Shown piece by piece: positions 1,781-28,764 of a stretch of 64,000 nt of DNA (within the stretch, counting starts at the first letter, position 1; each line of letters opens with the position of its first letter). This DNA comes from Pohlia nutans (taxonomy: Eukaryota; Streptophyta; Bryopsida; Bryales; Mniaceae), in the NCBI GenBank assembly GCA_022496805.1, contig CM040088.1, forward strand, positions 6,913,001-6,977,000, read 5' to 3'. The position numbers and the translations under genes are program-made. Below the pieces are notes generated by a model. The model was not told where the DNA came from. It worked only from the letters and a program-made list of their open reading frames with translations, and searched no databases.

Positions 1781-3828
1781 TCAGGGAACGGCATCCCAAC
1801 AAAGCTCACACATAAAAACTCCTTCAAGCTTTTCGTGTCGGGTTGCGGGGTTCCCGCCCAATTTAGGAAGGTTATGCCATTCATTGGCAGCCATGTCATA
1901 AAGCCTGATCAGCTGACTGACACTTCCATTTTCATCCATGTTGTCCCACGTCGAGAGGATGAACCCTGTGCTGGTGAAGAGCTCCATGTCATGCCGACCG
2001 ACGTATGACCCGATTTGCAGACCCCTCAAGGCGCCCTCGTAGTCGGTCAGTTTCCGCAGTTCCGACGTGTTGCTCTGCCATGCGTATTCTGAAACCACGA
2101 ACATTTCTGAGGTGTGACGCACTGTGTTCGGTTCCATGAGAGCATGCAACACAAACAGACGATCCTTCAGGAACGAGTAGCGTATGACCATGAGATCCTC
2201 AAGAGGAGTGTCAAGACTGTGCAACGTTTTCGTGGCGCAATCGAAAACAAGAGGATCCAATCTGTCGCCCAAGAGCGTGTTACCGGAGCCGTAAACCAGA
2301 CCCGAGTCCATGGTGCTCCATAACCCCGTTTTGGAGTCATAGACATCAACTGCAAGAGTTTGCTCCTTCTTCTCACGACATACCAAGAGCACTCTGTAAC
2401 AGTTTGCATCCGCATCCGTGACCAACTGCAACAAGACGGGCTCCTTCTTGCTAAGAGGCAACTCAGGGAGCGCTTTCCAAGCATTTGTTAAAGGATTGCA
2501 CACGTACACGGAATAGGGCCCCAAATCCTCTTCGTCCTCGCCCTCGGGCACAAAACAAACCAAACCTCCATCACACGCATACCATGAGTCCATGTACCCA
2601 TTCTCCAAAGGCAGGGTGAGCTCCACGCCATACCACTCCTTGGATTTGGCGTCAAACATTCGGGTCCGAAAGGATTCTAAATCATTGTCCCACCCCAGAA
2701 GACCAAAGAGATTGGGATTCGCCTCTGCAAAGCTTTGTTTGAAGCTGGAGGAATCTGACATTGAGGACCACGCACTGGAGCAATTCCTAAGCTCAATGAT
2801 TCGAGGGATAGGTAGTCGTGCAAATACCAGTACTACCAAATCCTCTGATAACTTGCTCCATAGCCCTGGATCTATCATCTCTGGATGATGAACGCATATG
2901 TGCCTACATAGTTGTTGACCGTTTCCTGCAGCAGCTCTTTTCGCTACCCTTCGTTCTGTGCTGAAGCTATTCGTGCATAAGGTGGGAACACCACCCATTT
3001 TTATCACTTTCCCTGAATCCGTCTCCTGAAAAGAAATGAGAATCTGTTAGAAAAGTGATGTGAAATGACAGAAATAAGCATCCTTACGATCCTACTTTTT
3101 AAATTCACAACCCATCCCCTATAACGAATGAGAATCTGTTAACCCCTAAAGGACCAAGAAGCCTCGTGTTTCTTTTGACAATTTTGAGTAGGTCCTAGGC
3201 GGACTTCCTTTTGTTCAAATTTATTATTTTTTGACCCACACAGGCAATGTTCTTCATTGATTCCGATGATATAAAATTTGGCCCTATCTGAATTATATTT
3301 TTTACAATATGATCAATTGAATTTGTCACCTTAAAACCATGAATCCTTGGTCTTTTAGGGGTTAAAAACGTGATGTGAAAAAATCGTCACTTGCAAAAGG
3401 TCTTCACAATTAGAACAATTGAGGGTTCGATTGAATATGGAAATAGCTCCGTCCAAAATAGACAACTCTACTTCTGAAAGTTCACAGAAAATACATTTAT
3501 AGTCCAAAAAACATATCCGGATTTCTGATTCTCAATTCTTCTATGAGAAAAAGGACAGTCCCAACATTCTTCACCCTCCAAAAAATGCTGAAAGGGACAG
3601 AAATGGGTGATGTTTCCTCTTTACCTTGTTTGATTCAGCAGGTTCCAAGACAGGGGAGGGTCTGTTCCACTTGGACCTCCTGTTGTCTTCCTCCGAAGCA
3701 GGGTATAATTCCTTTGTTGAATTAACTATCCGCATGTCTGAAACTCCCTCGAGGCCTGTTTTGAGAGAATTCACTATTCCCCGCAAGGCACCTGCGAGGA
3801 GAACCAGGTCTGGCCTCTCTTCTTCCAT
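1781..3828 (-). CDS. F-box protein with kelch-like C-terminal region
   Basis: Likely a substrate adaptor of SCF ubiquitin ligases. Exon 2 (3025-1781) encodes an F-box beginning IDPGLWSKLSEDLVVLVF, followed by about 300 residues resembling plant F-box/kelch proteins (FALARLP-type F-box core, later CNPLTNAWKALPELP and YDMAANEWHNLPKLGG, typical of kelch blades). Exon 1 (3828-3625) encodes 68 residues and joins exon 2 in phase 0 through a GTAA donor at 3624 and a TTTTCAG acceptor at 3026, giving about 482 residues. A TTAA-flanked MITE lies inside the intron. A shorter protein starting at the Met at 2878, just before the F-box, is an alternative. Further upstream, an ATG at about 3962 opens a helical frame that is one base out of register with exon 1, so the true 5' end is uncertain. 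What is seen: the F-box, kelch-like text and splice sites. The exon 1 link is inferred. Confidence 0.75.
3139..3365. mobile_element. TTAA-flanked MITE, family A, in the F-box intron
   Basis: The ends are TTAACCCCTAAAGGACCAAG and CTTGGTCTTTTAGGGGTTAA: a near-perfect inverted repeat enclosed by TTAA. TTAA target sites with CCC-starting ends fit the piggyBac group. The interior shares long similarity with 13,336-13,577 and 15,823-16,003. No coding capacity. Confidence 0.8.
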
Positions 3829-8015: not shown

Positions 8016-8023
8016 TGTGGTCT

Positions 8024-8037
8024 CCCGGGGGGTGCAC
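8024..8037 (+). repeat. Left terminal inverted repeat of the 9.1-kb transposon
   Basis: CCCGGGGGGTGCAC, the exact reverse complement of 17144-17157. It abuts the target duplication TGTGGTCT at 8016-8023. Its high GC stands out in an AT-rich setting. Confidence 0.85.
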
Positions 8038-8266
8038 CTTGTATTAAAACCTAGAATCACGTGCGTTCGCAACATACTCTAAAAACCCCCTATATACAAG
8101 TTTTTTTTTGTGAAATTAGGTAATACACATACAATTTTAATAATTAAAATACTAGAGACAATATGTATACACACAAAAAAATCCATTCATAAATAGTCAT
8201 TAACATAAGTATATAAATATACTATTGAACAATAATCAACCTCTACAATATGTATAATGCAATATC

Positions 8267-11200
8267 CTAGCTTTCATCAACAAAGTCGTTGAAAACTTTT
8301 TCATCCCCTGGATGTAACTCATAAGCATCTAATTCTGCAATATATGTCATTGTAGCTAATGCAATTATTGTTTCCAAATCTACCATCAAATGATCACTAA
8401 GGTTATATGTCCATTTGTTGTTAGACCCCTTCTGATACCAACATAAACCAATCTCCATGTTTGATGGACGGTCCATCAAGTCAATCGGATCTCTATATTC
8501 CACCCAACGACTACCAAACTTCCTACGCATCCTATAAACCCTCCCAACAAACCAAACCTTAAGTTGACCTGATTTTTTTGGTCTACCTCTTTTTTTTATA
8601 GTTTGAGCTTGAGGTGTGTTCAAAAAACACACACCAATATCACAACCAAGCTTTAACATAGTATCATGGTTTCCGGCACTAAGGAATTTAGGCTTCATAT
8701 ATAATATACCAGCCTTAATCCGAGTCAACCGATCTTTAGACAAAGTAGGATTGCCATTCAATTGACTAACAAGTGTACTTTTAAAAATTCTAGACTCCCC
8801 TACCATTACATAAGGCACAGCTGACTTTGCATTAGATAATGAGGGAAATTCAACACCTTCATGTTCATCAATAAGAACATCCAAAGTATGTCGAAGCTCA
8901 CTTTCCAACTCAATATCTTCATTTAAGTCATCTTCAACCCATGACTCCACCCCTTCAGCCTCTATGAAACCCTCTTTGCACATATTTGAATTGACTTGTC
9001 CAACACCACAATTTTCTTTGTCACTACCTTGTGTGATAGCATCATTATTCAATATGTGATCATAATCACATTCATCTTCCTCCATACTTCCAAACAAATG
9101 TGCTTCAATTTTTTTTTCATGTATCCATGGCTCTATCCACCAATTACCATCTCTCACAACATCGGGTTTCATACCTAATTCAGCACACATTTCTTGAGCC
9201 TCTTGAAATCCCAACTTCAAAGCTGAGACAATAACATCATCAGTTTCCACACATAAATAGTCACTCAAATCTGCAGCTCCTAATCCATGATTCTTCTCCA
9301 ACTCGGTCCATATGTGCGTTTGCTTCTTGTGAGCCCTCACAAAGCTTGGACCAGTAGGATCAGCCTCAAATTCTGCAATGCGCGCTAATGCTCCTGCACT
9401 TTCCACAAGATCACACCCATCATAGTTTCTCTCGTTTGAAATCATACCACCGACTTTACTGAAAAAAATTTCACAAACATCTTATCCAAGCAAGCCAAAT
9501 GGAACTTCTAAGTGGTTGTACTTATCCTTAAACAACTTGATAAGCAATACAATATAATGACATGAAATCTGCATATCTAAATAAGCTTGGCGACTAATAA
9601 AATTTGTTTTCAAGGAGTAAGTGTGGGTTCCTAAATGCAACCAAAGTTTCCACAAACGAAGAAAGAATGATACTTTTGATGCAAGTTTACATCTATCAAA
9701 CAATGACAAGTGACTCGAAAGAAAGACATCAATATAGGAAGATATAACCTGTAGGTAGTATTGTGTTCCCTTTGTCCTCTCCTTTCGATGTTGTGCACAT
9801 TCTCGAAGTTGCAATAAACAATCTTGCACTTTTTTAGATGCAAGGCGTTGAGCTGCAGTCCAATTTTGTCGATCTTCCCTCTTGATATCACCTTCCTGCA
9901 ATCCATGTTGATCAACAGAAAAAGTAGCATATACAAGATAGATGTGGTTAAGGGATGCATGTTCGTTGCCCAAAATCAAATGGCGTGTTGGTGAGTCCAA
10001 AGGATTTACAAGCTTCTTCCCATTATGCACAAAGTCTTGGTCATGTAAACCATAGATGTGAGAATTTGCTAAGACCTTGGCACTAAATAACCATCCATCC
10101 CATGGAATGCTAAATCGAATACCATCTGCTGCCCCATAGTCTTCAAGCATCAACTTTCTCCTACGAGCATCTCCATCTGATGCATGACCTATCAATGGTC
10201 CAACCACATCCAACAAATGGACAGACCACAATGCCCTTACCTTTTCCCACTGATTGCGAACAAACTCAGCATCAAAACGGTTGCAAGTCAACTGAATTAG
10301 TATCACTAGCCTAGGCAATCTAGGATGCAAAGGATTCACTATCAAAACTCGGGCAAAATGAGCTCTAATATTCATTTTAAAAGCTTGCACAATATTTTCA
10401 TAACCTTCAGCTTCAGACCCTACATTCACAACAAAATTAGAGATGCAATGATGGTTTTCAGCAACACCACAAAATCCAACCAAAGTATCATCTCTAGCTA
10501 TCCATCTCACAGCCCTTTTAACAACAGTTTCATCTTCAGCTACCATAGCAGGTACCTTTCCAAGGGGGATATTTGCAAGTTGCATTACAGATTTATAGAC
10601 TCCGGCAATGTGGCTAAAAACTTTGTCACTCTCTCCAATTCTATATTTCAATCCTTTTTGTAATCCTCGCTTGGTGGTATCCAAGGAAGGACCAGCCATG
10701 TTAGTTGACAAGAAATGATGAAGTCTAGGACCACCCCATAACTTGATGGTTTCAAACATTGCTTTGGTTGTCTTGTTGTATCTTTTTGCCTTATCGTCCC
10801 TTCCTACATTCTTTCCTATATCAGTAAGAAAGTCCCATAAGGATTCTTTTCCTTCAAACTTACCATGGTTATGTGCTACAATGATATTGCGGCAAAAAGT
10901 CTTCACATCACCTCTACCATGATACTCAACTGAAGATTCACGTAATGATCTGACCTTCACGGAAAGAGTTGCAACTCTAACTCTTGCTCTCCACAAGTTG
11001 TACCGTAAAGACCTGGCTTCTTTTCTTGATGATTGTGCAAGCTTAATAATTTCAAGTCTACCGTAATAACCCAACCGCACACCTGTTTTGAAGTTTCTTC
11101 CACCTCTACGAGTCTTGCTCTTCTTAGTACGATAAACCCTCATTCTAAAATCATTTTCAGCAGGAATTGAAGAACATGCAGAGCACCTAAATCCAAGGAA

Positions 11201-12601
11201 ACCTTCACCTCTAGTCAAGGAAATGCGAGCACAATTTATATGACGAAAAGTACCTTTGATAACATATTTGGTGCTACCATTTTGAATGTTAGCACAAGTA
11301 AAAGGTTCTGCATACCACTTCTTTCCTTTCTTAAGATCATCCAAGAATGGCTTTAAGTCCATGCTCACACCATTATAGTCCCACCTATCATCCCACAAAC
11401 CCCAACACATGCACAAAAGATGGGCATAATTGTTTGATTGCTATAAAGCATCAACCCCATCATTAGTAGAAGAGTCATCAATACTTGAAACACCTAAATT
11501 CACCAAGAATGAACTTAGATCTTTTTGTCTAGGATCCTTTACTGATGAAGGTCTAAAAGGACGACCTTTAGGTTTCGGATCTGATTTGGTAGAACAACCA
11601 CCAGAAAGGTTTGAGACTGCATCATGATGGGACTTTCCAATGACATGCTCACGCATGTTGCCTTCTAAGGATCCAGTTTTTGGAAATAACTGCATCCATT
11701 TGTTATCAACAGTACAACGAATTTTCATTGCCCCAAGTCTAGAATAATTGCCAAGTGTAGCTTCTACAAGCTCAAATTTGCTTGTAGGAAACTCAACTTC
11801 AAAGAGTTTAATTATTCCAAGTGCTTCTTGAACCCTGGATTTGTTCTCAATGAAGGTTTCTTCACTGTCATTGTTATAAGCCGTTTTTGAATGTTCCAAA
11901 TTACTTTTGAGCCCATTTCTTGCTTCGTAATTCTTCAAATGTCCATTTGAATTTATGTGCGACCGTAAATAATTAGCACATGCATCCCACGGCTTGTTGT
12001 TACCAGACCGATGATATCGTTCCTGACATTCATGACAAAAAAGATGGAATAGCACATTCTTTCCCTGATCCCTTGTTTCCAACTCTAGAGCATCACATCG
12101 ACCAAGTTTCTTTAATTTTCTTCTCGTATTTTGAATCTCATGTTGCCACTTTTGGACATCTTTGGTAGATGCAAGCTTACTGAACAATCGACCCGTTTGT
12201 TCAGATAGAGGCCCATTAGACTCTTCAATGATTATTTCCGTTGAACATTCCTCAATTCTTGGTTGTTTGCTCATGTTACCATTTTCAAGACCATCACCCA
12301 TTGAGGATGTTGTGGAAGCAACCGATGATAAAGAACGTTTGTTAGCACCTACTCCATTTGAAGGAACTATCAATCGGATGTGCACAACATCTCCTCTTAG
12401 TTTCATTTTCTCTTCTTGTTTAGAGGAAAACACACTACCACCAATACTCAACATCTGAAATTCAGATGTGGTTAATTCATCTTCTTTGATTGCCAACCTT
12501 ATGTCATTGTAAGTGGCACCCAAAGAAGAGAAGACAAACCCCAACTTAGTATGTTTTTCATCATTCACACACACAACTTTTACCTCCAATTCTTCAGCCA
12601 T
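8267..12601 (-). pseudogene. Transposase-like protein, one frame with two stops
   Basis: Three open segments (12601-11441, 11416-9482 and 9445-8267) share one frame. They are separated only by single stops, TAG at 11443-11441 and TAA at 9484-9482, so the parent was about 1,440 residues, intronless and continuous. Segment 1 begins with a ubiquitin- or PB1-like region (MAEELEVKVVCVNDEKHTKL), then a Cys2...His2 finger (CHECQ...H...H) and a second finger-like stretch. Segment 2 has CSAC near residues 78-81 and candidate acidic catalytic motifs AEDETVVK (residue 295) and GHASDGDARRRK (residue 414). It also has DQDFVHNGKKLVNP (residues 459-472), which resembles the D-x2-H, K, N motif of P/THAP9 transposases. 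Segment 3 carries LNGNPTLSKDRLTRIK and a basic patch KKRGRPKKSG. The family assignment is inference. The stops could be read through or edited, but decay is simpler. Confidence 0.65.
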
Positions 12602-12635
12602 TGCTTTGGATGGAAAAGATAAATCAGAATTTTAC

Positions 12636-12706
12636 CTCTTCTTGGTCTTTGGAACCATAATCAGAGCTGGCCACTCTTCTTTCAAGTATGATGCCACTAC
12701 AATTAC
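12636..12706 (-). pseudogene. Captured exon, SMARCAL1/ZRANB3-type SNF2 helicase
   Basis: A 71-base exon bounded by a TTTGCAG acceptor and a GTAAAA donor encodes VIVVASYLKEEWPALIMVP followed by a basic run. This matches the region after the Walker A helix in SMARCAL1/ZRANB3-like annealing helicases, where the pattern (A)I..A.Y...EWP.L..VP is conserved. Only this exon is present; the Walker motifs and the rest of the ATPase are absent. It lies 35 bases upstream of the transposase start on the same strand, so it could be spliced into a 5' leader. The identity rests on one short exon. Confidence 0.5.
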
Positions 12707-12780
12707 CTGCAAATGCATGCTTCATAATTAAAAACTAATTGCACAAATCATAGATTTCGATATATCCTTTGAACAATTGC

Positions 12781-12806
12781 AAACCCTAACCCTAACTCTA
12801 ACAATT
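12781..12806 (+). repeat. Short interstitial telomere-like tract
   Basis: Reads AACCCTAACCCTAACTCTAA, about three units close to the plant telomere strand (CCCTAAA) but with a 6-base period. It is too short to imply a former chromosome end. It may be a telo-box-like element of the transposon's leader. Confidence 0.35.
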
Positions 12807-13335
12807 GCAATTCCTAATCCAGCCCCAACAATTGCAATGGTGCACACACTTGCTTTGATTTTGATGTGAGGGACCAATATGTTCCTGCTATTTATATGCC
12901 TGTTTATTTTCTACACTGGTGCAATCAATTCTATCACAAATTTCTAGATTGAACTCCACCCATTTAAGGATTCTATACGTACATAAAGGAATCATAAATA
13001 ATGATTTGGGCATGACATTGAATGATCAACATATTTTTATGAAGGAGTATTTCACATAATCACATAAGACAACCTAGACACTCTTTTAATTAATCTGACC
13101 AACTTCACTTATCCATATCAACGATTGCAAAGCCTAACCAAAACATGCTAATAATCTTCTAGCCAATTCAATGACACTAATGTTTGACACCTAAGGCAAG
13201 GTAAACAAGAATAGACAAAGGACATTATATTGGTTAATGCAGATTGGATTTCCAGTTATCTTGTGAAGTAGTGGCATAGCACCTTTTGAGAACAGTGCCA
13301 ATTATGGGTCATTTAGAGCAAAGTCATGTACAAAG
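12807..13335. other. Transposon interior, no gene seen
   Basis: Non-coding part of the 9.1-kb transposon between the helicase-like exon and a nested TTAA MITE. Mixed composition, no open frames of note, no repeats recognised. Confidence 0.5.
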
Positions 13336-13577
13336 TTAACCCCTAAAGGACCAAGAAGCCCAATTAAACGTCATGTGTTTTTTATTAGATTTGAGTAAGT
13401 CTTTTGTGAACTTCCTTTCCTTCAAATTTCTTTAACTTTTGACCAACTCATGCAATGTTCTTCATTGATTCTGGTGATATAAAATTTAGTTTAATTTTAA
13501 TTATGTTTTTCACACTATGATTGATTGAATTTGTCATTTTAAAACCATGAACCCTGACTTGGTCCTTTAGGGGTTAA
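13336..13577. mobile_element. TTAA-flanked MITE, family A, nested in the 9.1-kb transposon
   Basis: Ends TTAACCCCTAAAGGACCAAG and TTGGTCCTTTAGGGGTTAA. The interior is collinear with 3,139-3,365 (shared blocks such as GCAATGTTCTTCATTGATTC). Being inside the large transposon, it inserted after that element arrived or travelled with it. Confidence 0.8.
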
Positions 13578-14216
13578 AGTTCTTATATGTGAAGACAATG
13601 ACTCAATCAGCTTGAGGAGCTCTCATTTGTTTAACTTTGCAAGACAAGATGTCACGGATTCCTTTTCATGCTAATTTAAAGGTTGCTCTTTAGACTGTTA
13701 CTGATCAAAACCACTACTACTAGTAATACATAAATAAAACAAGGGTCATGTTTGAAGTATAAAACATAGAATGTGATTGAGCTGCAAAGGATAATATAGT
13801 ATAATATCAAGTATAATATCAATGTGAAACAAAATCACACATGAAGGAGTGATTGAGCTGCAAGTACTTCACATACCATAAATAATATACACACACAATA
13901 AATAATACCAATGTGAAGCAAAATCACACATGAAGGAGTAACTGAGCAACAACTACTTCAAAGACCATTATTAAATTTCGTTTTTCACTGTAAATCCCTC
14001 TGTAAATCCAGAATCATGGGTGCATTGTAGGGACAATCCCAAAACCTCATATGTTGCACCGTACAAAACTCTCAAGAAAAGAAAAGAAAAAATAAACACA
14101 AATTCCATTCCCAATCACGACTTCCAAATTGGTAACCAACTTGCACATTGCCACCACTGCAAACATGCTCCAAAATTCTAGTATACATTGATCTCATTTT
14201 GAGAATGTACACCAAC

Positions 14217-14466
14217 TTAACCCCTAAGCGTATAAAACATCCAATATGGCCATCTGCATCATTGAACTTTGCAATGGTGGCATTTTTTCATTTAACCTCG
14301 GTTTTCTGATTGCAATACATCATTTTAAAGCTCTTGTTCTATACTACAAGATCAACAGTGTCGATCGTGTCAAAACGGAGCCATTTTCACATAAACAAAT
14401 GATTTTCAGCAGGAGGTCTAATTTTCCTATACTACAGAACATACGCAGTGGACGCTTAAGGGTCCA
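14217..14466. mobile_element. Degenerate TTAA element
   Basis: The left end TTAACCCCTAAGCG is intact. The right end is only approximately complementary (CGCTTAAGGG) and lacks a clear TTAA. Length and position match the other short TTAA elements. It ends about 12 bases from the donor site of the reductase-like exon. Confidence 0.45.
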
Positions 14467-14477
14467 AATGACCTTAC

Positions 14478-14564
14478 CTTGGCGATGAGCCGCTTCTTAG
14501 CCATAAACAACTTCCAGTCGAAGCTTATGTCGCCGCTGATGTTCCACCCAATCTCTCTTGAATC
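14478..14564 (-). pseudogene. Captured exon resembling glutathione reductase
   Basis: A GC-rich 87-base segment ends at a perfect GTAAGG donor. It encodes DSREIGWNISGDISFDWK followed by a basic helix. The GW.I....FDWK.....K pattern matches the segment after the redox-active CxxxxC helix in plant glutathione reductases. The cysteines and NADPH-binding parts are absent. The acceptor I chose (GAAG at 14565-14568) is weak, so the 5' edge is uncertain. The identity is tentative, but the exon-like GC content and donor inside a transposon are clear. Confidence 0.4.
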
Positions 14565-14566
14565 CT

Positions 14567-15268
14567 TCACCATCAGAATGCAGGATATTAGTTGACATCA
14601 GCTTAGTTGCACTTGTAAATCAGTTTGCATTCACTCCAAATTTTGGTCACCAAAACCCTGCACTTTTGATAGTCCCACAGAAATAAACACTGAAAAGAGG
14701 GACTTACTTGAAAGTAGCATACTAGTATACTACTTGAGGATGAAGGAATGCAGACTTGAGTTTACAAAACAAAGTAAGGATAGAAAGATTTAGTGCACAT
14801 TCTTACCTGCAAGTGAATACTTCAAGACCCTAGCATGTAAGTTCTATGCAAGATAGGGCTCTGACAGTGTTCACTTCAACTTGACAGAGTTGAGAGAGTT
14901 GACTGCTTATGCAAGATAGAGCTCTGACTGTGCAAAAGTAGGTTTGGTCTCCAAATCTTGATGCAGCCCGAAGTTGAAGTCGGATCACCTCAAAATCCAG
15001 CCCCTGCAAACCCTAAAACAGATGCTTCTGCACACTGTCAGCTTTCAGTACAAAATTAAATGCACTCACTACATTCACAGATTAGATATGAACAAATGAT
15101 TTTCGTATTATTCTTTTGCTACAGCTTGATTGATGCGGCAAGGCTTCAGTCAATCAACAGTGTACGAATTACTACTGCATGCACAGAACTAACTTATTGA
15201 AAAGAAAAAAAGGAATTAAAAAGGAATTAAACATGAGGATCAATTTATTTGGGGTTTAAAACCCTTAC
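14567..15268. other. Transposon interior between captured exons
   Basis: On the minus strand an acceptor-like GGGTTTGCAG near 15,003 is followed by an open frame of about 57 codons, which could be a further captured exon but matches nothing I know. A short duplicated motif (gcaagatagggctctgac / gcaagatagagctctgac) occurs at about 14,850 and 14,910. Nothing else is recognised. Confidence 0.3.
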
Positions 15269-15507
15269 CCCATCTATATCCGATCTGTCAGAACAGAGCT
15301 TGCGGCGAGCCTGACACGTTGCCTTGTAGGCAACGACGATGTGAGCCAATGCGAAGACAGCTGATGAGACCACGAGCAGCGGCAATCTCCTTTGGAAATT
15401 CTCATGCAGAGAGATCTTGAGCGAGAGGATCACGGCGGTACCGATCCCAGAGACGATGGTTACACCCAAGTACCACAGACTCGGAATTCCACATACAGCA
15501 TATGCAC
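15269..15507 (-). pseudogene. Captured exon encoding two membrane segments
   Basis: A 239-base exon sits between a TTGCAG acceptor and a GTAAGG donor. It reads through without stops as a plant-like membrane protein piece. A hydrophobic segment (WYLGVTIVSGIGTAVILSL) is followed by a basic loop (HENFQRR), a second hydrophobic segment (LPLLVVSSAVFALAHIVVAY) and a Cys/Arg-rich cytosolic-looking stretch. The intact splice sites and frame imply recent capture or constraint. I cannot name the parent gene. Its phase does not match the neighbouring LRR exon, so a direct splice between them would be out of frame. Confidence 0.5.
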
Positions 15508-15822
15508 CTGCAATTCATACAACATTCAGCAATCATCAATGGAATGTAAACTCAGGTATATGGTTGAACTTTACCAAAGATCCATGTTTAATAATAGAAC
15601 ATTCAGAAATTATCAATGGAATGGATTATTCAGAAAGTGAGCAGACTACTTGTAAGATTGTAGTCTGCTCACTTCCACTGCTATTGTGTCAGCGGCATCA
15701 CGGAAGGGCAGGGCGGGGGTGACTTGTGCATTACAGAACCAGAGCATAAAAAAGGGTGACTGCCTTCCTGCCTGTACCCTCACCTGTACAGATTAGATAT
15801 GAACAGAATGATTCTATTAGCA

Positions 15823-16003
15823 GTTTTGAATAGGTCCTTATGTAGACTTCCTTTTGATTGTCTTTTGATCAACACATGCAATGTTCTTCAAGTGCTGATT
15901 CCGGTGATATAAAATCTGGTCCTATCTGAACTATATTTTTCACAATACTATCGATTGAATTTGTCATTTTAAAACTATGAATCCTTTGCCCTTTAAGGGT
16001 TAA
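15823..16003. mobile_element. TTAA MITE, family A, 5'-truncated
   Basis: Collinear with the right three-quarters of 3,139-3,365, through CCCTTTAAGGGTTAA at the right end. The left terminus is missing, replaced by unrelated sequence. It lies between the membrane and LRR exons, inside the presumed intron. Confidence 0.65.
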
Positions 16004-16090
16004 ACAGGAATGCATCCTGAGGAATCATCAGATCCTAAGAATCGGCAGACAATGAGCAGAGCGGCCACAGCCAAAGTGAATAGAGCTTAC

Positions 16091-16234
16091 AAGTAATACA
16101 ATCTCGTCAAATTACTAAAGCTTTCCGGAATTGAGCCTTCCAGCATGTTACTCGCCAAATCCAGGTACCGAAGGTTCGCCAAAGTGCCAATCTCTGCGGG
16201 CATGTTTCCAATAATAGAGTTGTTGCGCAAATTC
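16091..16234 (-). pseudogene. Captured LRR exon (144 bases)
   Basis: Between a TTTACAG acceptor and a GTAAGC donor lies an exon of exactly 144 bases, that is two 72-base leucine-rich-repeat units. It has phase-2 borders, as is usual for introns that separate plant LRRs. It reads NNSIIGNMPAEIGTLANLRYL and then LDLASNMLEGSIPESFSNL, the plant extracellular LRR consensus (N.L.G.IP.....L..L..L.L). No signal peptide, other LRRs or kinase are nearby. It is therefore one internal exon of an LRR receptor-like gene carried in the transposon. Confidence 0.75.
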
Positions 16235-16267
16235 CTGTAAACATACAAACACCACAAATTCAGTAAA

Positions 16268-16780
16268 ATGGGATTCAACAGCCGAAGCTCTAAAAGACCA
16301 CAACAGCCTTCGAGAAAACCACAACAGCCTTCGAGAAAACCACAACAGCCTTCGACAGCAACAGCCTTCGACACAACAGCCTTCGACACAAAGACCACAA
16401 CAGCCTTCGACACTTACAAGACAGCCTTCACAAGACAAGACAAGACAAGACAGCCTTCACAAGACAAGACAAGACAAGACACTTACAAGACAGCCTTCAC
16501 AAGACAAGACAAGACAAGACCACAACAGCCTTCGACACTTACAAGACAGCCTTCTCTTGTCGCTCACAGTTCACAGGCACTCACAGCCGCTCCAGCCGCT
16601 CCAGCCGCTCCAGCAACACAACGGCCATCGGCAAAGAGAGGAAGAGGAAGAGAAGACGAGCAAAGCTCACAGTTCACAGGCACTCACAGCCGCTCCAGCC
16701 GCTCCAGCAACACAACGGCCATCGGCAAAAAGAGGAAGAGGAAGAGAAGACGAGCAAAGAGAAGACAAGGAAGATGAACG
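16268..16780. repeat. Subterminal minisatellites of the 9.1-kb transposon
   Basis: Three nested tandem arrays. CCACAACAGCCTTCGAGAAAA-type units run over 16,298-16,400. CAAGACAAGACAAGACAGCC-type units run over 16,420-16,555. A unit of about 110 bases (16,562-16,670) is repeated at about 16,671-16,770 and contains CAGCCGCTCCAGC runs. The plus strand is open for 169 codons, but the protein is a Gln/Pro/Arg repeat that follows the DNA repetition. Tandem subterminal arrays are common transposase-binding regions in plant DNA transposons. Here that role is only inferred. Confidence 0.7.
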
Positions 16781-17143
16781 GTACTAACCTATTGAGCCGT
16801 TCGAAACCCTAATGCTACTACCCCTTCAATCCCTGGATATGATACCCGGTTCTTGTTACCTACATCCTTGATACCCTCGTATGTGTACATAGTATCCCAC
16901 CTACACAACAAGGTAATGAGGAAACTGTACATCCACCTAGTTTCATCCAATGTCAATAAACACCTACTATAAAGTCTAGTACCACTACCATACAAATACA
17001 AATGTTATATATCCTTGTAGTGCCCTCCATATATGTACGTAATCACAAACTATAATATGTATACCATATGTATACGTCATACGGCAATGTTCAAATTAAT
17101 ACCCCTCCTGTGCACTCACGTATACTCGTACGTGTTTAGTACA

Positions 17144-17157
17144 GTGCACCCCCCGGG
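17144..17157 (-). repeat. Right terminal inverted repeat of the 9.1-kb transposon
   Basis: GTGCACCCCCCGGG, matching the left end in inverse orientation. It is followed directly by TGTGGTCT at 17158-17165, the second copy of the target duplication. Confidence 0.85.
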
Positions 17158-17165
17158 TGTGGTCT

Positions 17166-24516: not shown

Positions 24517-25849
24517 TTAGCCTTGAAAACTTATTCGCATTTCCACCAGGTGGACTAGGTTTGTAATCAAAGCACGCGTTGTGTTAGATTGCATCCGCGT
24601 CCGTTTTGTAAGCGTCGTTTTGTACGCTTCTCTCACTTCCTTCAAGAAATGAGAGTCCACATTTTCTTGCACTATAACCATGATTTGGTTTGAAAAGTAC
24701 TCTTTCTTTCTACTTAGTGCATCGGGCACAATATTGTCTTTGTCCGGCTTGTGGATCAATTCCATTGAGACGATAACATCATACCACCTCAACTCTTTAG
24801 GTGTCACATTTGCCTTAGAGTCAAAATACTTTAGTGAGATGTTATTCGTGAAGACCTTTGTCTTCAAACCTCCCACATAATGCCTCCATATCTTAAGGCA
24901 ATGCACCACCGCATAGAGTTCTTTCTCATGCGCTGGCCACCTTAGTTGACTCTCTGTCAACTTCTTACTTTCAAACGCCACAGGGTGTTCATTTTGCATC
25001 AACACCCCGCCAATGGCGTAAACACTCGCGTTCGTGTCTACTTCAAAATAATTTGAGAAGTTAGGATACAACAACACGTCTGCCGTTGAGAGCGCTAACT
25101 TCAAATCATTGAAAGCCGCGTCGCATTCCTCACTTCATTTGATTGCCTTATTTTTTTTACTGAGCAATTCTGACAACGGCGCGACTACTTTAGAAAAGTT
25201 CCTTATGAACTTCATATAGTAGTTAGCAAGTCCCAAAAATGATCTCACACCTTCTTGCGAAACTGGGATCTTCAAATCCATTATGGCCTTAATCTTTTAG
25301 GGGTCGGGCTTGATTCCTTGACTATTAATCACATGCCCCAAAAAATCTAACTCTTCGAACCCAAAGACACTCTTCTACAAGTTAGCATAAAGTTTGTTTT
25401 CTCTGTACTTCTCAAACACATGCCTTAAGTGTTTTGTGTGTTATTCTTGAGTTTTAGAAATCACTAAAATGTAAAAAATGTACACCACCACTAACGCATC
25501 AGTTATTTCATGAAAGATGCCATTCATCAAGGTGGTGAAAGTAGCAGGAGCGTTGCAAAACCCAAAGGGCATAACGACAAACTCATACGAACCATACCGA
25601 GTTCGCATCGCCGTTTTGAACACGTTCTTCTCACTTATCCTAATTTGATGATAGTCGGACTTCATGTCAATCTGGCTAAAGTATTTAAACCCCGACAACC
25701 TATTTAACAAGCCATCGCTTCTAGGTAAGGGATAGTTGTTTTTTATGATGACTTTGTTAAATGCCCTATATTCTATGCACTTTACTCACAAATAAGACCG
25801 GAGCTCCGAATGACGATTTACTTGGCCTAATGTAATCTCTTTCTAAGAG
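24517..25849 (-). pseudogene. Reverse transcriptase and RNase H of the Ty3/gypsy element
   Basis: RT text includes FSQIDMKSDYHQIRI and MPFGFCNAPATFTTLMN. The catalytic YIDD box reads YIFY (25,480-25,470 region), so polymerase activity is lost. After a disrupted stretch come SFLGLANYY.KFIRNFS-type text and RNase H (YPNFSNYFEVDTNASVYAIG). In RNase H the usual TDN/TDH reads TNN, so a catalytic aspartate is lost. The PDALSRKKEY end is typical. This copy cannot have moved itself. Confidence 0.8.
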
Positions 25850-26560
25850 TTAATCTAATTGTCTTTTAAGCTCTTGCAATTCTACTTGATTCAACCGGTA
25901 CGGCGCTTTGTATAGAGGCGTCGCACTGGGAATGAGTTCTATCTTGTGATTTCCCTCCTTTCGTGGCGGCAACTCGTCTGGCAACTCATCCGTCAAAACA
26001 TCATCAAATTCATGAAATAACTTAGACAACTTTTGGCTTAAGAGTGCCTCACGCTTAGGAGTGCCCTCACTTTTATGTCTTAGGAATTCAACATCCCTCA
26101 TTGTGATAACAAATTGTTTCTTTAACATTTGCTTCACACTTCGAACTACATAAATACCAAGGCCGTTCAAGACCGGCTTCCTTGTAAACTTAAGAACTTC
26201 CGGTTTGCGCTTCTCATTCACAACTACAACATGCGGACCTGGTCGCCTTCTAATTTCTATTCCATAATAGCCCATGAAGGTGTTTCCTAAGACCGTGCCT
26301 AAACCTTCTAAGCCGCACACCGTGAAATCCTCCTCAAACACTTTGCGCGGCCTAGCCTTGTCACCCATCTTGACTTTGAACTCCAAGTCCTTCACCACGT
26401 GGGTTGTCAACTTACTCCCTTGTGCAAACAAAACATCGACCGGCTCCGCGGTCTCCGTTTGCTCCAGTAGCAACCGCTTTGCACACGCAGAGCTTACGAA
26501 CGAATTCGTGGCTCCTGTGTCAAGCAACATAAAAAAGTTAGTTCCCTTTACCTTTACCAA
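25850..26560 (-). pseudogene. Aspartic protease and linker of the Ty3/gypsy element
   Basis: MVKVKGTNFFMLLDTGATNS contains the catalytic D-T-G of retropepsins followed by A-T-N-S-F. Downstream text (FHEFDDVLTDELPDELPPRK, then IELIPSATPLYKAPYRLN) is the usual connection to the RT domain in gypsy polyproteins. It lies in a different frame from gag and RT, showing frameshift decay. Confidence 0.75.
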
Positions 26561-26699
26561 AAGATAGACAAGACCCTTAGTGTGCGTGCCTACTCATGCC
26601 TTAGCCTCGAAGCCCTTCTTGAACCATAGTTCTGAAACTCAAACTTTTAAGAATGGAGGGGCCACGTTTGGTGGGGCTTACTTCTTTGGATGTCAATTC

Positions 26700-28764
26700 C
26701 TATTGAGGAAGCTGCGCAAGGTTGGGAGTCGTTGCCGCATGCATGATGCGGCTCTCAACCTTACTACTTACCTTTTCACCCTTCTTTGGCTTAAAGGACT
26801 TTTTGTCTTCACGAGGGACATAGTCATTCTTGCAATCCCTCGCGTGATACCCCGGCTGCTGGCAGTAATAACAAACGTCGTTCTGGTGGCGCGGGTTCTT
26901 ATTCCCGTTCTTCTTGCCTTTTTTCTTAGAGTCACCATCCTCTTTGCTCTTGGAAGTTTTTTCATACTTCCTCTTCTTGAACTTGTTGCCACCCGATTGA
27001 TGAGAACGGCCTTTGTCATTCTCATGAGATGGTTTCCCGGCCGCTTTGCCGTTCGCCATCTCCACTCCGATGCGTTCGGTGAGATCGATCGCATCCTTCA
27101 ACGTTTCAGGAACAGTTTCCCGCTCCCAAAACTTGTTCCTTGTTGGAACTTGCAAGCCCGCATAGTAGAGTACCAACTTAGAGTACTCATCCATTAACTT
27201 GCAAGTGAGGAGTTTGACTGGGAACGCGCGGCCATAACTTCTCAAAGAATCCGCCCCCGTGCCTTGGCGAAGTTGTGCAAGGTTAATGTCATCAAGGAAG
27301 TGTTGATGTTTGGCCTTGTACAAAAACTCACACACTTCTTTGGCCTTAGCTCAAGTGATGTGGTCCTCAATCTTCCCGTCGGCATAATTTGCCGCTTCTT
27401 GGAGCCACCTTGCTTGTGGCCCCGAGTACAACACCAAGGGAGGGGCTATAATGCGGGCGTTGTCATCCGTGATGTCGTTCGCATTAGCCCATATTTCAAA
27501 TTCCTGAAATAACTTCTGGATGGGGACAATTGTGTTCCCCGACATCCCAACTTTTGGGTGTTGGCAAATTCTTGGCAAACTGTTGGCGCGGCTCTTGAGT
27601 TTGCCCAATCGCGAACTCCTGCATCATCGTGGCGATGGTCTTCCTCTAGTCCACTTGGGAGGAGGTGATGAGTTGACTAGCCAAACCATTGTCCACTCCA
27701 TCATCGTTAGCCACTTCCTTAGCCACCTCCTTGGCCTTTTTGGCTTTCTTTTGCGGTGGAGAAGGAGGTGAGGGAGGAGTTGCCTCTTCCTCCTCCTCTT
27801 CTTCACTTTCCACCTCCTCCTCTTGTTCCTCTATTTTCTCATCGTCCTCCTGGTTCGCCTCTTCTCCATCGGAATCTTCCTTTTCGGATTCCTCCTCGGA
27901 AGAATCGGAGGATGAGCCATCAACACTTGGTTCCGATTGAGATACCACGGCCTTTGGTTTGGGCGTTTGGCTTGCCGACGCCTCCTTTACCGCGGCCGCC
28001 CCTTTCAACGTTGATGTTCCTTTCGCCCTAGTCGCCCCCTTAGGTGCCGACGCTGCCACGGCCTTTTGTGCCGGTGCCGCCGGTGCCTCTTTCGACACGG
28101 CCGCCGTCTTTGATGCTGGCGCCTTTTTTGGCGTCGTCGGTGTCTTCTTAGGCGCCGGTTTCTTGCTTTCTTGGGTAGAGACACTTGGTGCTTGAAGAGC
28201 GAAGATTACTTTAGTAGGTTTCTCAACCTCCTTAGGTTTTTCAACGGTGCGTGCCGGGTTCTGGCGGTCACTATCTTCCGTGCGTTCGTCTTCCGCGTCC
28301 TCACTTGACTCTTCCTCTTCATCACCTTCAAGCTTCTCGTTTTAAGCTTGAGACTTGTTAGCCTCCGAAGTGCTTTTAGCACCGCTAACTTCCTTGCCCT
28401 TCGCGGCGGCCTTTACCTCGCTTGGTATGGCCACCTTGGTACCTCTAGTACCGCCCGTCTTGGCGGCGGGAGTGCTTGCCTTAGCACTCGTCGCCGTTGG
28501 GTCCATCGCGACACCTCTCACCTCGGGAGTAAACACCACGGTATCATCTTGTGGCGGCGTCACTTTCTTAGGCCGTCCCAACTTCTTCTTTGGGACAACT
28601 CCCCCTTCCGCTTCTTTGGAAGGGGCAACCTTCTTGCCTTTCTTTATAACGAAGGCACTTGTGTTTTGCATTGCGGCTTCTAATGCATCCCTGCCTTCAT
28701 CCCCAAGGACCTCTTCATCTTGTCGTTGCGGTTTCGCCTCGGCGTTCTTGCTTAAAGGTGCCAT
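26700..28764 (-). pseudogene. gag region of the Ty3/gypsy element
   Basis: Begins MAPLSKNAEAKPQRQDEEVL. A long Lys/Ala/Pro-rich, then Glu/Asp-rich region follows, with one TAA at about 28,342 in an otherwise shared frame and a shift near 27,620. The capsid-like part (IWANANDITDDNARIIAPPL; WLQEAANYADGKIEDHIT) is interrupted by a stop near 27,350 and then continues. It ends with a classic CX2CX4HX4C zinc knuckle, CYYCQQPGYHARDC. The acidic and basic N-terminal extension of some 350 codons before the capsid is unusually long for a plant gypsy gag. Confidence 0.75.

What the first reader, a model, noticed from the sequence alone, without database searches (positions are those of the whole stretch)
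12636..16234. Four host-like exons collected inside one transposon
Upstream of the transposase frame, on the same strand, lie a SNF2 helicase-like exon, a disulfide reductase-like exon, a two-helix membrane exon and an exact 144-base LRR exon. All have GT donors and three have good AG acceptors. They look like pieces of four unrelated genes captured with their splice sites. This would be multi-gene exon capture by a non-MULE, non-Helitron element, with potential to make chimeric leader transcripts.
Basis: partly seen in the sequence, partly recalled or inferred. Interest (0 to 1): 0.92.

Follow-up and report, generated by a model that had tools for sequence, protein, structure and literature searches.

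The report
Transposon collecting host gene exons
A P-element-like jumping gene, apparently of a plant, holds pieces that look like exons of several unrelated host genes next to its own transposase gene, and sister copies of it carry different collections.

The parts
8016..8023 (.). target-site duplication TGTGGTCT (left copy)
   Evidence: 12 of 13 copies with both ends read have an 8-bp duplication, 10 perfect and 2 with one mismatch; L012 has none
8024..8037 (+). left terminal inverted repeat CCCGGGGGGTGCAC
8267..12601 (-). P-element-like transposase frame, 1,444 codons plus stop, with in-frame TAG (codon 387) and TAA (codon 1040)
11435..11443 (-). TAG CAATCA: conserved in-frame stop in a UAG CARYYA context, between the N-terminal part and the catalytic part
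12636..12706 (-). SNF2 (motif Ia) helicase exon piece; matches the SNF2 loci from 12651 to 12706; acceptor shared with them, donor at 12635 not
12707..13241 (-). captured intron of an SNF2 gene (L041 matches 12707-12725, 12731-12778, 13116-13193, 13200-13241 in order; 12779-13115 unmatched)
13336..13577 (.). nested short inverted-repeat element (20-bp perfect ends); related stretches at 15809-16004 and 3138-3366
14310..14463 (.). stretch shared with sister copies; in L022 it abuts an S1 exon instead of the reductase-like exon
14478..14569 (-). disulfide-reductase-like exon (identity weak; 5' limit uncertain; GT donor next to 14478)
15223..15648 (-). block holding the membrane exon; found in 1 of 21 copies examined (the window's)
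15269..15507 (-). two-helix membrane exon, 239 nt, AG/GT
15635..15674 (.). 15-nt perfect inverted copy of adjacent backbone at the border of the membrane block (arms 15635-15649, 15660-15674)
16091..16234 (-). LRR exon of 144 nt, AG/GT, phase 2 to 2
16268..16777 (.). short repeats upstream of the cargo, near the right end
17144..17157 (-). right terminal inverted repeat
17158..17165 (.). target-site duplication TGTGGTCT (right copy)

Best explanation
This is one copy of a multi-copy, P-element-like cut-and-paste transposon family in an unnamed, apparently plant genome. Between its transposase ATG and its right end lies a bay of about 4.5 kb into which pieces of host genomic DNA (exon plus intron flank) have been copied stepwise. 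Shown: the element's ends and TSD, the transposase fold, the genomic origin of the SNF2 piece with its intron, protein homologues of the membrane exon, and different cargo in sister copies. Inferred: host DNA entered by double-strand-break repair of the element with template switching into host DNA (or by aberrant excision), not by retroposition; the SNF2 and reductase-like pieces are older and spread with the family, and the membrane piece joined last. Splicing of the exons into the transposase leader is possible but not shown.
Against: Genome loci of origin were found for SNF2 only; the other three were not searched (server busy). The reductase assignment is not significant by itself (nothing). 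The capture mechanism is read from one junction. L022's right end was not reached, so its S1 exon is inside the element only by its position next to shared sequence. Several copies were not read to the right end, so the absences of LRR and membrane pieces are in part untested. L012 has no matching TSD.
Confidence: 0.85

Rival explanations
1. The bay is selected: captured exons with working splice sites serve as leader exons or as an intron trap that helps express or hide the transposase, so exon-containing fragments are kept preferentially.
For: Where cargo exons were identified they lie between the right end and the ATG. Splice dinucleotides are kept in most copies (SNF2 acceptor and donor in 10 of 10 other copies matched; LRR-144 both in 2 of 3; reductase-like donor in 7 of 8). 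The S1 exon of L022 and the reductase-like exon of the window both end in a GT donor just before the same shared stretch.
Against: Donor lost in L016 (LRR) and L014 (reductase-like); the SNF2 donor is not parental; exon phases do not join; no RNA data. Sister cargo was scanned on the transposase strand only, so its orientation is no evidence, and protein searches see exons but miss intron-only captures.
Confidence: 0.15
2. The four exons come from one ordinary host gene interrupted by the transposon.
For: They are on one strand in a row.
Against: They lie inside the TIRs and TSD, look like unrelated families, phases do not join from LRR to membrane, the membrane block is missing from five sister copies with a continuous flank (L009, L011, L012, L013, L016), and the SNF2 loci elsewhere have their own SNF2 exons on both sides.
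Confidence: 0.01
3. Chance open frames that resemble domains.
For: Possible for the reductase-like piece: no search gave significance.
Against: LRR E 3.9e-8, membrane E 9.5e-29, SNF2 with genomic loci of origin.
Confidence: 0.03
4. The cargo arrived inside nested Pack-type elements that inserted into the P-like element, not by the element's own repair.
For: Nested inverted-repeat elements occur in the bay (13336-13577, 15809-16004).
Against: No clean target duplication was seen at the membrane-block borders, the one junction compared.
Confidence: 0.15

Closest known systems
Tgm-Express1, soybean CACTA element (PMC1947982; abstract and outline seen)
   Same: A TIR transposon with fragments of five unrelated host genes; its fragments are spliced as extra exons.
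   Different: A 5.7-kb CACTA element made up of host fragments; here a P-like transposase frame of 1,444 codons lies beside the cargo, the TSD is 8 bp, and splicing is untested.
Pack-TYPE elements of CACTA, hAT, PIF and Mariner (PMC8903248, passages seen; review PMC13317346, passages seen)
   Same: Host coding fragments between TIRs with TSD; capture in several TIR superfamilies.
   Different: Described there as non-autonomous; 'P element' occurs 0 times in the main text of PMC8903248.
Drosophila P element transposase (PDB 6p5a, 6pe2)
   Same: Same fold over 394-399 residues. An 8-bp TSD is shared too (the P value is recalled), but hAT also has 8 bp, so it is not diagnostic.
   Different: 14-15% identity; no THAP match; longer frame with an N-terminal extension and an in-frame UAG; carries host exons.

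Membership tests
P superfamily | transposase core with the P fold | tested here: met
P superfamily | 8-bp target-site duplication (feature recalled) | tested here: met
   12 of 13 copies with both ends read, 10 perfect; none in L012
P superfamily | catalytic D-D-E at the P positions | tested here: inconclusive
   acidic columns are conserved (D809, D811 invariant, E1044 nearly) but were not mapped residue by residue on the P structure
P superfamily | match to the Pfam TNP-like (P-type) domains | tested here: inconclusive
   TNP-like_GBD E 0.13 and TNP-like_RNaseH_N E 0.21, each in 1 of 18 members; none in the window's own frame
canonical P/THAP9 type | N-terminal THAP zinc finger (feature recalled) | tested here: not met
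   no THAP match in the 1,444-residue frame at E up to 5; HMMER filters drop most weak matches
Pack-TYPE element | host gene fragments between TIRs and TSD | tested here: met
Pack-TYPE element | non-autonomous, without a transposase gene | tested here: not met
   transposase frame present, though with stops, in the window and as one piece over codons 1-1444 in 9 of the 14 other copies tested
Helitron | no TIR and no TSD (feature recalled) | tested here: not met
   TIR and TSD present
MULE | MULE transposase domain | tested here: not met
   no MULE Pfam match; closest solved fold is P
hAT | hAT transposase (8-bp TSD is shared) | tested here: not met
type I stop-codon readthrough | UAG followed by CARYYA | tested here: met
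   TAG in 15 of 15 and TAG CAATCA in 14 of 15 distinct loci covering the site; motif as in PMC5382211 (passages)
type I stop-codon readthrough | readthrough product made | not testable with these tools
   no translation data

The most novel reading that the evidence does not exclude
A plant lineage of P-like transposons has a standing exon-collecting bay in its 5' leader: exons with their splice sites are swapped in and out between subfamilies and spliced into the transposase transcript, while the transposase itself is made through a programmed UAG CARYYA readthrough that yields a DNA-binding protein alone and a full transposase.
Probability: 0.2. Interest if true: 0.87.

Novelty: new variant of a known kind. 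Interest (0 to 1): 0.68.

Why it matters
Gene capture in plants has been described for MULEs, Helitrons and, more recently, CACTA, hAT, PIF and Mariner elements. A P-like family with a transposase gene beside a bay that holds a different set of host exons in different copies gives a natural series of captures of different ages in one genome, from which the capture steps and the fate of splice sites can be read directly.

Tried and rejected
Six-frame Pfam scan of 12602-17143 (both strands, E up to 1) listed only LRR families and an SRP9 match at E 0.027, below its cut-off; it also missed the SNF2, reductase-like and membrane pieces, so it is insensitive to short exons. An alternative frame of the reductase piece gave no PDB match. 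The SNF2 peptide gave no PDB match and two phage records at E 8; the reductase peptide gave no plasmid match. A padded protein search for both had 15 candidates, none with E up to 10. The membrane peptide gave no PDB or Pfam match. A viral-contig scan with the transposase alignment gave no confirmed relative, and the transposase no PDB match by sequence. Pfam scans of the L009, L010 and L012 cargo on the transposase strand gave nothing at E up to 0.1; the oxidoreductase and LRR-72 exons there were found by reading the frames, where L010's listed frames show neither. Of the 17 places, the pieces on C12 (L043) look like element remnants and the one on C22 was not fetched. Four literature searches on P elements (10, 5, 1 and 1 papers listed) showed no title or abstract start about a P-type element with captured genes; most subscription papers are not held.

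Full report
The observation. The four pieces are on the minus strand, upstream of the transposase ATG at 12601. They lie inside a bounded element: 14-bp perfect inverted repeats at 8024-8037 and 17144-17157 (two matches against a shuffled mean of 0.04) and the direct repeat TGTGGTCT immediately outside both. The element is 9,134 bp. Exon limits and splice contexts were read: LRR 16234-16091 (144 nt, AG/GT), membrane 15507-15269 (239 nt, AG/GT), reductase-like ending at 14478 (GT donor, no clear AG), SNF2-like 12706-12636 (AG/GT).

What the exons are. The LRR exon is a plant receptor-kinase type repeat pair (Pfam LRR_1 E 3.9e-8; best PDB hits are plant LRR kinases). The membrane exon hits five proteins: P0020 at 78% over 99% (E 9.5e-29), P0021 and P0022 at 76% and 75%, P0023 at 76% over 68%, and P0024, of 548 residues with alpha/beta-hydrolase Pfam domains, at 50% over 84%; the source organisms are not named. 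P0023 reads on after ...DRSDMDG into a stretch absent from P0020 that ends in HQ before the common VSSIIIL. I read that as a retained intron; it starts exactly where the element's exon has its GT donor. The SNF2-like exon matches two other loci, on C14 and C13, 98.3% identical to each other over 2.9 kb. There the exon reads AIAVASCLEKEWPVLIVVPSSLRLQWAM, between an exon with DEMGLGKTLQ and one with DEAHYLKNA. The match (85%) covers the exon from 12651 and runs on in pieces, in order, through the upstream intron to 13241 (L042 lacks one of the four pieces). The reductase-like piece matches thioredoxin reductase residues 80-100 at E 1.8 only; its resemblance to plant glutathione reductase is recalled, not tested.

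Not one gene. LRR ends two bases into a codon while the membrane exon begins with two bases that complete one, so they do not join in frame (my reading). The families are unrelated, and the membrane block is missing from five sister copies whose flanks run on (L009, L011, L012, L013, L016).

The element family. The genome (697.8 Mb, unnamed) gave 40 scored left ends, the window's included, of 416 candidates. I fetched the 20 best after the window. Of 13 copies with both ends read, the window included, 12 have an 8-bp duplication, 10 perfect and 2 with one mismatch; L012 has none. By similarity: group A is the window and L009-L016 (96-98%); group B is L020, L022, L024, L026 and L027 (about 86-90%), which match over the left end and the transposase to about 12620 and then mostly differ. 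L017 is 91% over 8024-12088, L018 matches 660 bp only, and L019, L021, L023, L025 and L028 are internally deleted. L038-L040 (81-90%) carry the SNF2 piece next to transposase sequence, so that capture is probably older than group A.

The bay. By DNA match in the 21 copies (20 plus window): SNF2 in 8, reductase-like in 9, LRR-144 in 4, membrane in 1. Copies not read to the right end, or deleted, are among the misses; L015 probably also carries the SNF2 piece beyond the fetched stretch (L034). Group A copies L009 and L012 also hold quinone-oxidoreductase exons (PDB E 4.6e-5) and a 72-nt LRR exon. Of the group B copies I scanned L020 and L022, on the transposase strand only: L020 holds a ribosomal S15 exon (E 6e-10) and L022 an S1 exon (E 3.8e-14). 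The S1 exon of L022 and the reductase-like exon of the window abut the same stretch (window 14310-14463), as if cargo had been exchanged there. L020's S15 lies inside its ends; L022's right end was not reached.

The transposase. The frame 12601-8267 has 17 homologues: four from liverworts (Riccia, Calypogeia), one from a coral, twelve of unnamed source; none has a precomputed Pfam domain. A model of residues 540-1180 (pLDDT 81.3, pTM 0.81) matches the Drosophila P transposase far above all else. THAP was not found, and the Pfam P-type domains are only hinted at. I call it P-element-like and do not file it as a canonical P element. That the host is a plant is inferred from the liverwort homologues, the LRR type and an F-box frame nearby.

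A conserved stop. Codon 387 is TAG in 15 of 15 distinct loci covering the site and is followed by CAATCA in 14 of 15. This fits the type I readthrough motif UAG CARYYA described for plant viruses (PMC5382211, passages seen). Between groups A and B (L009 and L020) dN/dS is 0.25 before it (codons 1-386), 0.18 for 388-1040 and 0.40 for 1041-1444, and similar in L009-L022, so both sides were under selection while the stop was present, unless it arose twice. L009, L011, L012 and L013 have no other stop. Against: close A pairs show dN/dS of 0.4 to 2.1, above 1 in parts, and homologues that cover the site have no stop there.

How it most likely works. The element moves as a P-like cut-and-paste unit, and host DNA entered its 5' region in steps. 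The membrane block, seen in no other copy, is probably the latest; at one border the window has a short repeated GGAATTAA stretch, and at the other a 15-nt perfect inverted copy of the adjacent backbone (15635-15649 against 15660-15674). That fits repair with template switching better than nested insertion, but it is one block. Tandem insertion with re-mobilisation, proposed for Pack-TYPE elements (PMC8903248, passages seen), is not excluded. Splicing of these exons into a transposase leader is possible, as reported for Tgm-Express1 within a host gene (PMC1947982, abstract seen), but untested here.

Known or new. Multi-gene capture by TIR elements is known. A P-like family with a transposase gene beside a variable exon bay was not among the papers listed by my searches. 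I rate it a new variant of a known kind.

Noticed in passing
window 11435-11443 (minus strand), and 14 other loci: In-frame TAG in the transposase followed by CAATCA (UAG CARYYA type): TAG in 15 of 15 loci covering the site, TAGCAATCA in 14 of 15, with dN/dS well below 1 on both sides between subfamilies. A candidate programmed readthrough in a DNA transposon.
   Followed up: partly
L020 6862-6985, L022 8672-8834: Sister copies carry ribosomal S15 and S1 domain exons in the corresponding region.
   Followed up: partly
L009 about 8457-8790, L012 about 8103-8440: Sister copies carry quinone-oxidoreductase exons, and nearby a 72-nt LRR exon.
   Followed up: partly
window 13336-13577, 15809-16004, 3138-3366: Short element with 20-bp perfect inverted ends TTAACCCCTAAAGGACCAAG at 13336-13577, with related stretches.
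   Followed up: no
L012 and L013 (C5, 25 kb apart, opposite strands): Two copies with the same left flank ACTCATTG and the same match statistics; L012 lacks the duplication at its right end. Perhaps an inverted segmental duplication with a rearrangement.
   Followed up: partly
window 1781-3007 (minus strand): F-box protein frame with a beta-propeller match (Pfam E 4.8e-8; F-box E 0.00031).
   Followed up: no
window 24517-28098 (minus strand): Frames that look like pieces of a gypsy-type retrotransposon, judged by eye.
   Followed up: no
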